This document shows, in pieces, positions 40,776 through 47,273 of a stretch of 64,000 nt of DNA. This stretch comes from Bacilli bacterium. GTDB lineage: Bacteria; Bacillota_I; Bacilli_A; RF39; UBA660. The stretch covers positions 147,082 through 211,081 of the forward strand of contig JAFUBO010000005.1 in the NCBI GenBank assembly GCA_017460175.1, written 5' to 3'. A program made the translations under genes and the position numbers. The first letter of the stretch is position 1, and every line of letters begins with the position of its first letter. Under the pieces are notes generated by a model. The model was not told the DNA's origin, made no database searches, and was given only the letters and a program-made list of their open reading frames with translations.

Positions 40776-40801
40776 AAATAGGATTTAAAATCCTATTTTT
40801 T
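40774..40801. terminator. Bidirectional intrinsic terminator
   Basis: AAAAATAGGATTT / AAATCCTATTTTT palindrome between the convergent iPGM-like gene and tetR; it includes the tetR stop. Confidence 0.85.
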
Positions 40802-41386
40802 TAATTCTAAATAATCAAGTTCTGGAATTAATTTATCCAATTCATCTAACATAACTTCTTCTGATATATTATTAGGATTCATAATAGAAGATGCTAATAA
40901 TGTAATAACTCCACTAACATAAAATAAAGCAATATTTTCATTAGAAATATTAGAATGATTAATACAATGTTCATTTAATTCCTCACATACAGAATTATAT
41001 GCAGCTTCAAACATCATATCATGAGCTACCGAATTGTAGTTCTTTTTTATTATAGAAAGAATAGAGTAAGTATTAACTATTTTAGATAAATATAGGAATA
41101 ATTCCTTAACTATAATCATAAAATATTCTTTAATACTATCTACTTGAGTATTCTTATACTTACTTAAATGAATAATAAGTTCATTTTTTAAATCATTCAT
41201 AAATGAATTTAATAATTCATACTTATCATTAAAATGATCATAAAAAGTAGATCTATTAATTAAAGATACTCTACATATATCAATAACTTTAATATCTTCA
41301 AATGATTTTTCTTCCATTAATTCTATTAAAGCTTTATATAAATTAGCCTTTGTCTTACGTACACGTAAATCTTCATTTTTATTCAT
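40793..41386 (-). CDS. TetR-family transcriptional regulator
   Basis: 197 residues. N-terminal TetR DNA-binding domain: TKANLYKALIELMEEKSFEDIKVIDICR, with recognition helix INRSTFYDHFNDKYELL. The C-terminal ligand domain is of the DhaS-like type (TetR_C_33-like, YSILSIIKKN region). Divergent from the MMPL pump gene, so most likely its repressor. Three related inverted repeats lie in the shared 176-base intergenic region. Confidence 0.92.
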   Translation of the reverse strand: MNKNEDLRVRKTKANLYKALIELMEEKSFEDIKVIDICRVSLINRSTFYDHFNDKYELLNSFMNDLKNELIIHLSKYKNTQVDSIKEYFMIIVKELFLYLSKIVNTYSILSIIKKNYNSVAHDMMFEAAYNSVCEELNEHCINHSNISNENIALFYVSGVITLLASSIMNPNNISEEVMLDELDKLIPELDYLELKK

Positions 41387-41411
41387 AGTTTTTCACCAAT
41401 AAAAATTATAG

Positions 41412-41496
41412 TTGTTTTTCCAACAAAAGTAAAGATAAACCACAAATGTTGTTTAAATAACAAACAAAATAAATAAAAATGTAGTTTAATAAACAT
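41412..41496. promoter_or_regulatory. Three candidate TetR operators between tetR and mmpL
   Basis: TTGTT-N5-AACAA at 41412-41426 and again at 41449-41463, plus a related TAGTT-N5-AACAT at 41482-41496 embedded in AAATGTAGTTTAATAAACAT. Sites two and three also share the flank AAATGT. Spacings are 37 and 33 bases, about three helical turns. Identical half-sites in a divergent regulator/pump region are typical of autorepressing TetR proteins. Confidence 0.55.
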
Positions 41497-41562
41497 TTTT
41501 TTAAAAATGTAACTTCATATTTTTACTCATTTGCATAATAATTACAAAGGAGGAGGAAATAT

Positions 41563-43626
41563 ATGAAGAAATTTGCAGATTTTATTACAAAACGACATAT
41601 TTTAATTTTAATTATCGGTTTAGCTTTATTAGTACCTGCAATTATTGGTTATATTAATACGAGAATTAATTATGATATTTTAGTATATTTACCAGATAAT
41701 ATAGATACTATTAAAGGTGAAAAGATATTAACAGATGATTTTGGAATTGGTAGTTATGCTTTTGTAATGACAGATATGAAAGATAATTATAAAGTTTTAA
41801 AATTAGAAGAAAAAATAAAAAAAATTAATGGAGTTAATAAAGTATTTAGTATAGCTGATGTACTTGATACAACTATTCCTAAAGATATGTTACCAAATGA
41901 AATAAAAGATAAATTATATGATAAAGATACAAGTATAATAATGGTAACATTTAATGGCTCAACTTCAGAAGATGAAACGATTGAAGCAGTAAGAAATTTA
42001 AGAAAAACAGTAGGTAATGCTAATAGTGTTAGTAGTATGACATCTATGGTAGTAGATACAATGGACTTGTCTAATCAAGAAATACTAATCTATGTAGTAA
42101 TAGCAGTAGCATTATGTTTATTAGTTCTTACTATAACAACAGACTCATATATAATACCATTTTTATTATTAGGTAATATTGGTATTGCTATTATTTATAA
42201 CATGGGAACAAATATTTTCTTAGGAGAAATATCATATATAACAAAAGCAATTGCAGCGGTATTACAATTAGGAGTTACAACAGACTTTTCAATATTTTTG
42301 TATCATAAATATATACAAGCAAAAGAAAAATCAAAAAATAATACTGCAGCTATGAGTGATGCAATACAAGAAACATTTAAATCAGTAATAGGATCAAGCC
42401 TAACTACATTTGTTGGATTCTTAGCACTTTGTACAATGGATTTAACATTAGGAAAAGATATTGGTCTTGTAATGGCTAAAGGTGTATTAATGGGACTTAT
42501 TTGTGTTTTAACTATTTTCCCTGCACTTCTATTAGTATTCGATAAAGTAATAGAAAAAACAACTCATAAAGTATTATTGCCAGAATTTAAAGGAATACAA
42601 AAATTCTCAAGTAAATATTATAAATATATATTTGTAGTATTTTTAATACTTTTAATTCCAGCGTATATTGGTAATAAAAACTGTATGGTTTATTATAAAC
42701 TGGATGAATCACTTCCAAGTAACTTAGCATTCCATGTTGCTGATACTAATCTAGCTAAAAAATTTAATATAACATCTCCTGAAATAGTAATATTAAGAAA
42801 AGAAGTTAATCGAAACAAAGTACAACAATTAACTGAGAAACTTGAAAAGGTTAAAGGCATTAACTTAGTACTTGCACCTAATACATTAGTAAGTGATGAA
42901 TTTTCTAGTTTATTACCTAAAGAATTAAATGAATTACTAGATAATCCTAAATATCAATTAATTATTATGAATTCAAAATATGAAATAGCATCAGATAAAT
43001 TAAATAATCAAGTAAAAGAAGTAGAAAAAATTGTTAAAGAATATGATAAAAAAGGTATAGTTGCTGGAGAAGGGGCTTTAATGAAAGATTTAGTAACTAT
43101 ATCAGATCATGATTTCAAAATGGTTAATTATACATCAATTATAGTTATATTTATAGTAATGCTTTTAGTTCTACAATCAATTGGATTACCAGTAGTACTA
43201 ATATTTGCAATAGAATTTGGTATTTTTGTAAATATGGCAATATCATACTACACCGGAGTAAAACTTCCATTTATCGCAAGTATAGTAGTAGGAACTATCC
43301 AGTTAGGAGCAACAATTGATTATGCAATTTTAATGTCTACTACATATTTAGAAGAAAGACATAAGAAAAAGAAAGAAAAACAAAAAGCAATAGAAGATAC
43401 ATTAAAAGTAACTGTACCATCTATTATAACTTCAGCACTATGTTTCTTTGCAGCTACAATAGGAGTAAGTATTTATACAAAAATAGATATGATTGGTTCA
43501 ATTTGTACATTACTTGCCAGAGGTGCTATTATTTCAATGTTAGTAGTTATAATAATTCTTCCATCTCTATTATTAATATTTGATGGATTTATCTTAAAAA
43601 CAACTAAATTTAAGGAGGGTAAATAA
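41563..43626 (+). CDS. MMPL/RND-family membrane transporter
   Basis: 687 residues with about 12 membrane helices in two repeats. Each repeat has one helix, a large extracytoplasmic domain, then five helices. The RND/MMPL motif GVTTDFSIFLYHKY in repeat one and GATIDYAILMSTTYLEERHKKK in repeat two carry the helix-4 acidic residues expected for proton coupling. Exports lipids or hydrophobic compounds in related bacteria. Strong AAAGGAGGAGG site; two bases before the heptad-repeat gene, so cotranscribed under TetR control. Confidence 0.93.
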   Translation: MKKFADFITKRHILILIIGLALLVPAIIGYINTRINYDILVYLPDNIDTIKGEKILTDDFGIGSYAFVMTDMKDNYKVLKLEEKIKKINGVNKVFSIADVLDTTIPKDMLPNEIKDKLYDKDTSIIMVTFNGSTSEDETIEAVRNLRKTVGNANSVSSMTSMVVDTMDLSNQEILIYVVIAVALCLLVLTITTDSYIIPFLLLGNIGIAIIYNMGTNIFLGEISYITKAIAAVLQLGVTTDFSIFLYHKYIQAKEKSKNNTAAMSDAIQETFKSVIGSSLTTFVGFLALCTMDLTLGKDIGLVMAKGVLMGLICVLTIFPALLLVFDKVIEKTTHKVLLPEFKGIQKFSSKYYKYIFVVFLILLIPAYIGNKNCMVYYKLDESLPSNLAFHVADTNLAKKFNITSPEIVILRKEVNRNKVQQLTEKLEKVKGINLVLAPNTLVSDEFSSLLPKELNELLDNPKYQLIIMNSKYEIASDKLNNQVKEVEKIVKEYDKKGIVAGEGALMKDLVTISDHDFKMVNYTSIIVIFIVMLLVLQSIGLPVVLIFAIEFGIFVNMAISYYTGVKLPFIASIVVGTIQLGATIDYAILMSTTYLEERHKKKKEKQKAIEDTLKVTVPSIITSALCFFAATIGVSIYTKIDMIGSICTLLARGAIISMLVVIIILPSLLLIFDGFILKTTKFKEGK

Positions 43627-43627
43627 A

Positions 43628-45304
43628 ATGAAATTAAATAAGAAAATAAGTTTAATCGCATTAGTATTAATATTATCTAATCCATTAAATACTTTTGCAT
43701 TAACTAAAACAGAAACAGTATACACAACACTAAAAAATACTGGTGAAGTAGAAAAAACAGATATAAATGTATCTCTAAGTAAATTAACTGAAGGAGAAGT
43801 AATTGATTATACTAATTTAGATAATATTAAAAATATTAATGGTGAAGAAACTTTCTCAAGAGATACTAATAAAATCACATGGAAATCTACTGGTAAAGAT
43901 ATTTATTATAAAGGAAAATTAAATAGTGAATTACCAATTAAAGTAACTGCAAAATATTATCTAAATAATGAAGAAAAACCTTTAACTGAAATTATTGGTA
44001 AAAAAGGAAATATAAAAGAAGTATTTAAATTTAAAAATGATAGTTACGATTATAATAGTGGTATGTATACACCATTTGTAGTAAGTACTATTAGTATGAT
44101 AAATACAAAAAATAATTCAAATGTAGAAGTAAGCACAGGTAAAGTTATTAATACAGGTAATAAATCTATAGTAACTGCAATATCTGCACCAGGTTTATAT
44201 GAAAGTACTAATATTTATGAATTAAGAAATATGGATGAAGTAACTATTTCATATGATACAGATAAATTTAGTATGAATGATATATATTTTGTAATTACAC
44301 CTAAATTATTAGATGAAGTAGATATTTCTAATTTAGATAAAATAAGTACTGTTACTAATTCATTAAATACACTACAAGATGGAGTAAATAAATTAGAGTC
44401 AGGATCTAATACTTTATATGAAGGTAATAATAGTTTAAATGAAGGATTAAAGTCTTTAAACGAAGGATTAGAAAAAGCATTAAATGGTTCAGATGAATTA
44501 TATAAAGGATTAAGTCAAGTAGAAGAAGGTAGTAGTAAAATAAATTCTCTAACTACTTTAGTAGATGAATTATATAAAACATATAAAGAAAATGAAGCAC
44601 TTTTAAATAATATTAAAGAAGGTATAACAGAAGAACAATTAACAGAAGGAATTAATACTGCAACAGAGGAAAAAACATCACTAGAAAATAAATTAAATGA
44701 AGTAAATACTGCTATTACTATGTTAGAACAAATACCACAAGAAGTAATTACAGAAGAACAAAAAGTAACACTTGAAACTTTAAAAGGTCAAAAAATCCAA
44801 ATAGAAAATGGTATATCTGAATATGCCAAAGGTATTAGTGAAGCAGAAGCTAACTTAAAAATGCTTCCAACAGCTTCAATTAAACTAACAACATCTAATG
44901 AAGTAATATCAAAAGTACTTTGTGGTGTATTAGGAGTTAGTGATATCAATGCAGTAAATGATGAAGTAATTAATACATTTAAAATACAAATAACTACTCT
45001 AACTACAGGTATTTCTAAATTATGTGAAGGAAGTAAAGAATTAAATACTGGTTTAAATGAGTTATATGAAGGATCTAATAAATTAGTAGAAGGTTCTACT
45101 AAGTTAAGTGAAGGTAATAAAGAACTATTAGAAGGTATTACTAAACTAAATAATGAAGGAATTAAAAAACTAAGTAATTATGGTAGTAAAATAAATAATT
45201 ATTCTTATAATATAAAAACATTAATAAACTTAAGTAAAAACTACAAAGGATTTACAAGTAGTAATGCAGATAAAACAATCTTTATATATAAATTATCAAA
45301 ATAA
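43628..45304 (+). CDS. Exported protein with X-X-X-Leu-X-X-Gly heptad repeats
   Basis: 558 residues. Signal peptide about 1-24 (KKISLIALVLILSNPLNTFA), a beta-rich N-terminal domain to about 230, then heptads of the form xxxLxxG (LQDGVNKLESGSNTLYEGNN) over 246-302. A helical hairpin follows, then a second repeat block at about 458-507 (ITTLTTGISKLCEGSKELN onward). Such repeats accompany YhgE/MMPL exporters and probably form long coiled rods on the outer face of the membrane. No C-terminal membrane anchor or LPXTG is visible. Partner of the pump encoded just upstream. Confidence 0.88.
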   Translation: MKLNKKISLIALVLILSNPLNTFALTKTETVYTTLKNTGEVEKTDINVSLSKLTEGEVIDYTNLDNIKNINGEETFSRDTNKITWKSTGKDIYYKGKLNSELPIKVTAKYYLNNEEKPLTEIIGKKGNIKEVFKFKNDSYDYNSGMYTPFVVSTISMINTKNNSNVEVSTGKVINTGNKSIVTAISAPGLYESTNIYELRNMDEVTISYDTDKFSMNDIYFVITPKLLDEVDISNLDKISTVTNSLNTLQDGVNKLESGSNTLYEGNNSLNEGLKSLNEGLEKALNGSDELYKGLSQVEEGSSKINSLTTLVDELYKTYKENEALLNNIKEGITEEQLTEGINTATEEKTSLENKLNEVNTAITMLEQIPQEVITEEQKVTLETLKGQKIQIENGISEYAKGISEAEANLKMLPTASIKLTTSNEVISKVLCGVLGVSDINAVNDEVINTFKIQITTLTTGISKLCEGSKELNTGLNELYEGSNKLVEGSTKLSEGNKELLEGITKLNNEGIKKLSNYGSKINNYSYNIKTLINLSKNYKGFTSSNADKTIFIYKLSK

Positions 45305-45328: not shown

Positions 45329-45343
45329 GTTAACCAATAAAGG

Positions 45344-45372
45344 TTGACATAAAAAATATACTGTGATATGAT
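45344..45372 (+). promoter_or_regulatory. Strong promoter upstream of the 25-residue peptide gene
   Basis: TTGACA (45344-45349), 17-base spacer, TATGAT (45367-45372). Confidence 0.85.
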
Positions 45373-45402
45373 TAAAACGAATTTGAGGAAAGGAGTGAGA
45401 AT

Positions 45403-45480
45403 ATGATCAAATTTGAAAAATTGAAAAGTATTTTTAGTAGTGGCTATAATGAGGATTTATTATATTCTCATGATTTTTAA
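45403..45480 (+). CDS. 25-residue peptide, leader or cargo of the following ABC exporter
   Basis: ATG 45403 preceded by an excellent AAAGGAGTGAG site and a near-consensus promoter. Reads MIKFEKLKSIFSSGYNEDLL then YSHDF and stop at 45478. It begins with a short basic amphipathic stretch and ends acidic/aromatic. A hairpin terminator follows 13 bases after the stop, before the ABC gene. Could be a regulatory leader peptide controlling readthrough, an exported signal peptide, or a small cytoplasmic protein. No family recognised. Confidence 0.6.
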   Translation: MIKFEKLKSIFSSGYNEDLLYSHDF

Positions 45481-45492
45481 CGTATTAAAAAT

Positions 45493-45512
45493 AGTCACTT
45501 ATGTGACTTTTT
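45493..45512 (+). terminator. Terminator/attenuator between peptide and ABC gene
   Basis: AGTCAC-TTAT-GTGACT (45493-45508) then T-rich TTTTTATTTT. No separate strong promoter is seen before the ABC gene at 45537, so some readthrough is likely. Confidence 0.75.
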
Positions 45513-45536
45513 ATTTTAAATAAAGAGGTGAATAAT

Positions 45537-47273
45537 ATGAAAAAAATGAAAAATTTTAAAATATTATTCCGATACTTAAAAGATGAAAAGGTAAAATTAT
45601 TCTTATATATTTTACTAGTTGTACTTAGTTATTTACCTTCTTTATTAGGAGTATACTATTGGGGTTTGGCTGTTGAAAAATTAGTATTAAATGATTTTAA
45701 TAGTTTTGTATTCTATCTTATTGTAATGTCTGTAGTAAATATACTATTTTATTCAATATTACAAATACCTAGAGATAGTTTATATAACTATTTAGAAATC
45801 AAATTTACTAAGAACGTTAGTAAAGATTTATATAGTAAGATAGACTCTTTACCTGTAAGAAGCTTTGAAGAAATCGGAGTAGGAGAATTTATTAATAGAT
45901 TATATACTGATCCTGATAGAATAATGCAATTACTACAAAAAATGATTAGATTAATATGTAAATCTATTATACTTGTAGTAGTTTTAGTAATAGCATTTTC
46001 TACATCATATATATTAGGATTTGAAATATTAATATTTGGATTTATAATGGGATTTATTTCAGCAAAATTTTTCCCTAAAATTAAAAAGACTCATGAAAGT
46101 ATAAAGAAAGAGTCTGATAATTATGTTAAAGTCGCTACGGAAAATATTACTGGTATAAGAGAAATAAAATCTCTTGGTATTAAAGAAAATATTCGAAAGA
46201 ACTTATTTGGTATATTAGATAATATGTTTAAACATACTAAAGATATTAAAAAATATGAAGTTACTTATTTTAGTTTAAATAATTTAAGTTATTTCATTTT
46301 ACAATTTGTTATTTTAGTAACTGCTGCATATTTTGTAGTTCAAGGTAAAATATCTTATTCTTTATTTATAGTACTTGAATCTTATATTTGGAGAATAGAT
46401 GATGTTGTAGAAAGTATTAGTGATTTTGGAGTTAATTATAATAAAGTTACTGTATCTTTAAAGAGAATTGGTGAAATTATTAATAATGAGCTTTATAAAG
46501 ATGAATCATTTGGTAATAAAGAATTAATTAATACTAAAGGTGTAATAGAATTTAAAAATGTTAAATTTAAATATAGTAAAGATGAAGATTATACATTAAA
46601 AGGACTTAGTATGATAATACCTCCTCATAAAAAGATTGCTATAGTAGGTCGTAGTGGTAATGGTAAGAGTACAATATTTAATTTATTATTAAGATATTTT
46701 GATTCTACACATGGTTCTATTAATATAGATGGTATTAATATTAAGGATTTAAGTGAAAAATCTTTAAGAGATAATATATCTATCATTAGACAATCACCAT
46801 TTTTATTTAATTTAAGTATATTAGATAATTTTAAATTGGTTAAAGATGATGTAACTTTTGAAGAAATAAGAGAAGTATGTAAAAGAGCATATATTGATGA
46901 TTATATACTTAGTTTACCAAAAGGATATGAAACAATAATAGGTGAAGGTGGTATAAATCTATCTGGTGGACAAAAACAAAGATTAGCTATTGCTAGAACT
47001 TTATTATTAAATACAAAGATAATTTTATTTGATGAAGCAACTAGTGCATTAGATAATGAAAGTCAAGAATATATTAAAAGAACTATTGATGATTTAGTAA
47101 AAGATCATACAGTAGTAATTGTGGCACATAGATTAAGTACTATTGTTGATGCTGATCAAATTAATATTATAGATAAAGGTATACTTTCAGGTAGTGGTAC
47201 TCATCAAGAATTATTAAATAATAATAAGATTTATCAAAGTTTATATAATAATGAATCCTCAAATTCAGAATAA
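45537..47273 (+). CDS. ABC transporter, fused permease and ATPase (exporter type)
   Basis: 578 residues from ATG 45537 (AAAGAGGTG). Six membrane helices in the first ~300 residues, with the cytoplasmic coupling segment VATENITGIREIKSLGIKEN. Nucleotide-binding domain: Walker A IVGRSGNGKSTIF, Q-loop ISIIRQSPFLF, signature LSGGQKQRLAIART, Walker B ILFDEATSALD and switch His VAHRLSTI. Type IV exporter half-transporter, likely a homodimer. Substrate unknown; possibly the adjacent 25-residue peptide. Confidence 0.94.
   Translation: MKKMKNFKILFRYLKDEKVKLFLYILLVVLSYLPSLLGVYYWGLAVEKLVLNDFNSFVFYLIVMSVVNILFYSILQIPRDSLYNYLEIKFTKNVSKDLYSKIDSLPVRSFEEIGVGEFINRLYTDPDRIMQLLQKMIRLICKSIILVVVLVIAFSTSYILGFEILIFGFIMGFISAKFFPKIKKTHESIKKESDNYVKVATENITGIREIKSLGIKENIRKNLFGILDNMFKHTKDIKKYEVTYFSLNNLSYFILQFVILVTAAYFVVQGKISYSLFIVLESYIWRIDDVVESISDFGVNYNKVTVSLKRIGEIINNELYKDESFGNKELINTKGVIEFKNVKFKYSKDEDYTLKGLSMIIPPHKKIAIVGRSGNGKSTIFNLLLRYFDSTHGSINIDGINIKDLSEKSLRDNISIIRQSPFLFNLSILDNFKLVKDDVTFEEIREVCKRAYIDDYILSLPKGYETIIGEGGINLSGGQKQRLAIARTLLLNTKIILFDEATSALDNESQEYIKRTIDDLVKDHTVVIVAHRLSTIVDADQINIIDKGILSGSGTHQELLNNNKIYQSLYNNESSNSE

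What the first reader, a model, noticed from the sequence alone, without database searches (positions are those of the whole stretch)
45344..45536. 25-residue peptide gene with strong promoter and attenuator ahead of an ABC exporter
Near-consensus promoter, excellent ribosome site, a 25-codon frame, then a hairpin terminator and the exporter gene. Two models fit: a translation-sensing leader peptide controlling readthrough, or a secreted peptide whose exporter is next door. The frame is too short for standard annotation.
Basis: partly seen in the sequence, partly recalled or inferred. Interest (0 to 1): 0.6.

Follow-up and report, generated by a model that had tools for sequence, protein, structure and literature searches.

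The report
Ribosome-sensing attenuator before an ABC exporter
The tiny gene is almost certainly not a secreted peptide but a sensor: the RNA ahead of an ABC exporter gene is built so that the exporter is probably switched on only when a ribosome gets stuck at the start of the small reading frame, a known style of antibiotic-inducible control found here in a conserved, apparently undescribed form in uncultured gut bacteria.

Summary
In detail: an 11/12 promoter with TG before the -10, a strong ribosome site, a 25-codon frame (45403-45480), an intrinsic terminator (45493-45508) and an ABC exporter (45537-47273). I read 34 related leaders, nearly all ahead of related exporters, in uncultured gut Bacilli. 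The peptide is not conserved: the TTCTC motif near its end falls in all three reading frames, and a 1-nt indel shifts the frame between loci whose exporters are 86-90% identical. The open frame is kept (25/25; 0/25 in either other frame). Base pairing is conserved: the leader's ribosome site (A) pairs with the end of the frame (C), and an element inside the frame (B) pairs with the terminator's 5' arm (T1). Both helices show compensatory changes beyond shuffled and slid controls. An RBS-like copy (D) can pair with C inside the B:T1 antiterminator. Best model: a ribosome held near the start codon blocks A:C, B:T1 forms and the exporter is transcribed; otherwise A:C forms and transcription terminates. 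This works like Bacillus vmlR and bmrBCD attenuation. Cargo is rejected; drug sensing is inferred, not shown. New variant of a known kind.

The parts
45344..45372 (+). promoter, -35 TTGACA (45344-45349) and -10 TATGAT (45367-45372) with TG; predicted start of RNA near 45379
   Evidence: 11/12 matches, 17-nt spacer; same promoter position in the relatives
45379..45389 (+). conserved 5' end of the leader RNA, GAATTTGAGGA
   Evidence: near-invariant in 20 leaders; role not explained
45395..45407 (+). element A: end of the SD, spacer and start codon; pairs with C (RBS:anti-RBS, anti-antiterminator)
   Evidence: folds; covariation of A:C in 21 leaders
45403..45480 (+). 25-codon leader frame MIKFEKLKSIFSSGYNEDLLYSHDF, stop TAA 45478-45480
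   Evidence: frame open in 25/25 leaders, 0/25 in the other frames
45439..45447 (+). element B, AGTGGCTAT: antiterminator 5' arm inside the frame
   Evidence: pairs with 45491-45499; covariation
45449..45456 (+). element D, ATGAGGAT: RBS-like sequence that can pair with C as a local hairpin inside B:T1
   Evidence: support weaker than for A:C and B:T1
45459..45471 (+). element C, anti-RBS (ATTATATTCTCAT) at the end of the frame; pairs with A (OFF) or with D (ON)
45491..45499 (+). element T1, ATAGTCACT: terminator 5' arm and partner of B
45493..45518 (+). intrinsic terminator: stem 45493-45508 and T-rich tail
45537..47273 (+). ABC half-exporter (ABC_membrane + ABC_tran), 578 aa from ATG 45537

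Best explanation
The region is a ribosome-mediated transcription attenuator. OFF: RNA around the leader's own ribosome site and start codon (A) pairs with the end of the leader frame (C); B is trapped in the loop, the terminator forms and the exporter is not transcribed. ON: a ribosome that has loaded but is held at or near the start codon covers A; C pairs with its neighbour D, B pairs with T1, the terminator's 5' arm, and RNA polymerase reads through into the exporter. A ribosome that moves normally passes over B, D and C and leaves, which resets the switch. The peptide has no role of its own. The likely trigger is a drug or peptide that arrests ribosomes during or just after initiation. Shown by comparison: the kept frame, both long-range helices, the linkage to the exporter. 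Inferred: order of events, trigger, drug-export function.
For: Frame kept in 25/25 leaders, no other frame open. A:C: 91.9% of cells paired, 6 of 10 pairs with changes on both sides, 0/500 shuffles on all five measures, slid controls at 40-62%. B:T1: 90.1% paired, 8 of 9 pairs with changes on both sides, 29 such cells, 0/500 shuffles for paired cells and score; own T1 -12.1 against -7.5 kcal/mol for T1 of other leaders, 0/20000 permutations (first 19 leaders). Free full-length folds give A:C plus terminator in nearly all leaders; with a ribosome footprint at the AUG, transcripts ending at T1 give B:T1 at mean probability 0.91 and D:C at 0.81. The same logic is proven for vmlR (PMC9226507) and, for an ABC exporter, bmrB (PMC4191407). 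In one relative the same leader class precedes a cassette with a double APH-domain protein.
Against: No expression or drug data. No arrest motif is conserved in the peptides. For the window's own sequence a T1-ended transcript favours B:T1 (0.88) even without a ribosome, so the default OFF state depends on timing or on the full terminator. With a ribosome at the AUG, full-length folds still favour the terminator in many leaders, so the antiterminator must act kinetically. A:C is weak in L011, L083 and L065, B:T1 imperfect in L045. The exporter's substrate is unknown.
Confidence: 0.72

Rival explanations
1. The peptide is cargo: a secreted signal or bacteriocin exported by the neighbouring ABC transporter.
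For: Short frame with an excellent ribosome site directly ahead of an exporter.
Against: Peptides unrelated among relatives; frame shift between close relatives; TTCTC in three frames; no peptidase domain in the exporter; the covarying helices need no product.
Confidence: 0.03
2. Same attenuator, but it senses general slow translation, amino-acid shortage or low ribosome supply rather than initiation-arresting drugs.
For: No conserved arrest motif; peptides are simply AT-rich; vmlR too responds to compromised translation.
Against: No repeated codon for one amino acid in the peptides; the helix that must be opened contains the ribosome site itself, which fits arrest at the start codon; the controlled gene is an exporter, in one lineage an APH cassette.
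Confidence: 0.2
3. The leader is a ligand or protein-binding RNA (riboswitch-like); the frame is incidental.
For: The 5' block GAATTTGAG is more conserved than an SD needs.
Against: The frame is kept in all 25 leaders tested and no other frame is; SD and AUG are among the best-conserved columns; no compact conserved pocket; no Rfam match.
Confidence: 0.05

Closest known systems
vmlR leader of Bacillus subtilis (uORF MIN, anti-antiterminator SL-1), PMC9226507
   Same: Anti-antiterminator holding a uORF start region, antiterminator with a hairpin at its apex, terminator; opened by ribosomes arrested at initiation; uORF sequence may vary
   Different: vmlR uORF has 3 codons and its SD lies in a single-stranded region before SL-1; here a 24-33 codon frame whose end is the anti-RBS; the target is an exporter, not an ABC-F factor
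bmrB leader of the bmrBCD operon, Bacillus subtilis, PMC4191407
   Same: Translated leader frame with terminator, antiterminator and anti-antiterminator ahead of ABC multidrug exporter genes, induced by ribosome-targeting drugs
   Different: 53-residue leader with the three structures at nt 60-162 of the frame, so not involving its ribosome site; heterodimeric exporter; sequence homology of the leaders not tested
tlrB (yxjB) leader of Bacillus subtilis, PMC6851288
   Same: Leader peptide with attenuation; [quoted passage not shown]
   Different: Tylosin-specific RYR arrest motif near the end of a 9-residue peptide; target is an rRNA methylase; stalled ribosome blocks the terminator directly
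patAB terminator of Streptococcus pneumoniae, PMC4319486
   Same: Intrinsic terminator ahead of an ABC efflux pump holds expression down
   Different: The abstract describes the terminator only; no leader frame or RBS helix is described there

Membership tests
Ribosome-mediated transcription attenuators (trp/bmrB/vmlR kind) | Translated leader frame ahead of the gene | tested here: met
   Frame open 25/25 against 0/25 in other frames, SD and AUG conserved; translation itself not measured
Ribosome-mediated transcription attenuators (trp/bmrB/vmlR kind) | Intrinsic terminator between leader frame and gene | tested here: met
   in the window; found in 32 of 34 leaders, absent in L080 and L087; the one found for L047 is a different hairpin
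Ribosome-mediated transcription attenuators (trp/bmrB/vmlR kind) | Mutually exclusive antiterminator overlapping the terminator, reachable by ribosome position | tested here: met
   B:T1 covariation and permutation tests; footprint folds
Ribosome-mediated transcription attenuators (trp/bmrB/vmlR kind) | Readthrough changes with translation state | not testable with these tools
   Needs a reporter or RNA-seq
vmlR-type initiation-arrest attenuators | Anti-antiterminator that a ribosome at the uORF start codon opens; uORF sequence free to vary | tested here: met
   A:C contains SD and AUG and covaries; peptides not conserved. Homology to vmlR is not claimed
vmlR-type initiation-arrest attenuators | Induction by lincosamides and pleuromutilins | not testable with these tools
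   No drug data
Known Rfam RNA families | Covariance-model match above the gathering score | tested here: not met
   best matches far below threshold
Peptide cargo/bacteriocin gene with dedicated exporter | Conserved peptide sequence; peptidase-containing exporter or maturation genes | tested here: not met

The most novel reading that the evidence does not exclude
A distinct attenuator class of uncultured gut Bacilli in which the leader's own ribosome site is the sensor strand: the end of the frame is an anti-RBS that swaps between the real RBS (OFF) and a built-in RBS mimic (ON). It would report ribosomes arrested at initiation whatever the peptide sequence, and controls an ABC exporter and, in one lineage, an APH-type cassette.
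Probability: 0.45. Interest if true: 0.62.

Novelty: new variant of a known kind. Interest (0 to 1): 0.52.

Why it matters
If right, a family of uncultured gut and rumen bacteria carries an inducible exporter whose switch needs only a loaded, arrested ribosome, and the RNA alone would tell which of their genes answer translation inhibitors. The exchange of an anti-RBS between the true ribosome site and a mimic is a compact design not described in the papers read here. It gives a handle on exporters of unknown substrate and a possible reporter for initiation-arresting compounds.

Tried and rejected
Rfam search of the leader: no family. Pfam on the peptide: nothing. Three covariance-model searches failed on the server. 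Own-genome DNA hits outside the locus look unrelated to the leader. Three of 22 pattern-scan hits (L050, L054, L058) are ordinary genes; L097 is a false model hit beside coding sequence. Pairing of the conserved 5' end GAATTTGA with AAATTC in codons 3-10 is suggestive but weak, and the sequences are not independent. Orthologous exporters L067, L070-L075, L078, L079, L082, L084, L086 and L088-L090 show no such leader, so it is not universal. Secreted cargo was rejected on frame shifts and lack of conservation.

Full report
What is there. The window lies in a 0.99 Mb genome; the named records holding the same leader are uncultured gut and rumen MAGs labelled Bacilli, Bacillales, Erysipelotrichaceae or Firmicutes. 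Between a heptad-repeat protein (43628-45304) and an ABC half-exporter lie a promoter (45344-45372), a conserved 5' block, a 25-codon frame (45403-45480) and an intrinsic terminator (45493-45508). The exporter has ABC_membrane and ABC_tran domains only and resembles P-glycoprotein, Sav1866 and MsbA at a general level, so its substrate is open.

Relatives. Exporter orthologs were searched in 39 genomes of the genus and in 98 genomes of the family, 97 genera (28 genomes positive at E<=1e-120). A leader pattern was scanned through the genome-contig collection. Covariance models R1 and R2 were run on family and order samples. I collected 34 leaders. In the family sample 11 of the 28 ortholog loci carry a clear leader and two a doubtful one (L065, L077); the rest have none. 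In the window's own genome the element occurs once.

Peptide or leader. Each of 25 leaders tested keeps an open frame of 24-33 codons from the conserved AUG; the other two frames are closed in all 25. The peptides are unrelated outside close relatives. The conserved TTCTC near the end is read as Y-S-H, F-S-L or I-L-T, in all three phases. L007 and L008/L009, with exporters 90% and 86% identical to the query's, differ by a 1-nt indel between B and C that shifts the peptide's C-terminal part. Selection therefore acts on translation and on the RNA, not on the peptide.

Three helices. (i) A:C pairs the SD/start region with the end of the frame. On alignment A3, 91.9% of cells are paired, 6 of 10 pairs show changes on both sides, 0/500 shuffles reach any of the five measures, and slid controls stay at 40-62%. 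Examples: GTGAGAAT:ATTCTCAC, GTGAGAAC:GTTCTCAC, GTGGAAAA:TTTTCCAC, GTGTTA:TAACAC. (ii) B:T1 pairs codons around 12-18 with the terminator's 5' arm. On A4 90.1% of cells are paired and 8 of 9 pairs have changes on both sides (rows placed in register by hand, so cells paired leans upward). Swapping T1 between leaders weakens the mean duplex from -12.1 to -7.5 kcal/mol, 0/20000 permutations as good. (iii) D:C is a local hairpin from an RBS-like sequence just after B, nested inside B:T1; its statistical support is weaker.

How it works. A:C plus terminator, and B:T1 plus D:C, exclude each other. Full-length free folds give the first in nearly all leaders. Ending the transcript just after T1 and masking a ribosome footprint at the AUG gives the second (mean B:T1 0.91, D:C 0.81). 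A footprint at the stop codon blocks B:T1 only where T1 lies close to the stop. For the window's own sequence the T1-ended transcript favours B:T1 even without a ribosome (0.88), so timing matters. Inference: a ribosome arrested on the first codons turns the exporter on; normal flow or no ribosome leaves it off. A translation inhibitor is the likeliest cause of such arrest.

Precedents. vmlR uses an anti-antiterminator opened by ribosomes arrested at initiation of a uORF whose sequence may vary (PMC9226507). bmrB controls an ABC exporter by ribosome-mediated attenuation (PMC4191407). In tlrB a hairpin also represses further leader translation (PMC6851288). The present element works like these but puts its own ribosome site into the switching helix and carries an RBS mimic; no Rfam family matches. 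Hence a new variant of a known kind; common descent with those leaders was not tested.

Extras. L047 keeps the leader where its relative L048 has leader plus exporter between the same neighbours; the exporter is gone and the hairpin has lost its T-tract. In G067 the same leader class (A:C; B:T1) precedes a P-loop kinase, a methyltransferase-like protein, a double APH-domain protein and an AAA_33 kinase. This fits drug response but proves nothing about function.

Limits. The sequences are related, so shuffle counts are not probabilities. There are no expression data. Several leaders fit poorly (L011, L045, L064, L065, L083).

Noticed in passing
window 45329-45349: Inverted repeat GTTAAC-N8-GTTGACA overlapping the -35 box; only two exact copies of GTYAAC-N5-10-GTTGACA in the whole genome, here and at a ribosomal-protein-like gene promoter on C1. 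It recurs at many relatives' leaders and may be an upstream terminator overlapping the promoter.
   Followed up: partly
L047:3807-3975: Orphan leader: the exporter is missing between the leader and the gpmA-like neighbour, while L048 keeps it in the same setting; the L047 hairpin has lost its T-tract.
   Followed up: partly
L080, L087 and L077, upstream of the exporter: Leaders with the RBS:anti-RBS pairing but no intrinsic terminator found (L080, L087), or with the leader frame overlapping the exporter start (L077): possibly translational versions of the switch.
   Followed up: no
L099:3890-7550: Same leader class ahead of a P-loop kinase, methyltransferase-like protein, double APH-domain protein and AAA_33 kinase, a possible drug-modification cassette.
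   Followed up: partly
window 45379-45387: The 5' end GAATTTGAG is nearly invariant although it is outside the A:C helix; weak pairing with AAATTC in early codons is the only lead.
   Followed up: partly
window 40793-45304: TetR-family regulator divergent from an MMPL transporter and a heptad-repeat (TIGR03057) protein directly upstream of the attenuator.
   Followed up: no
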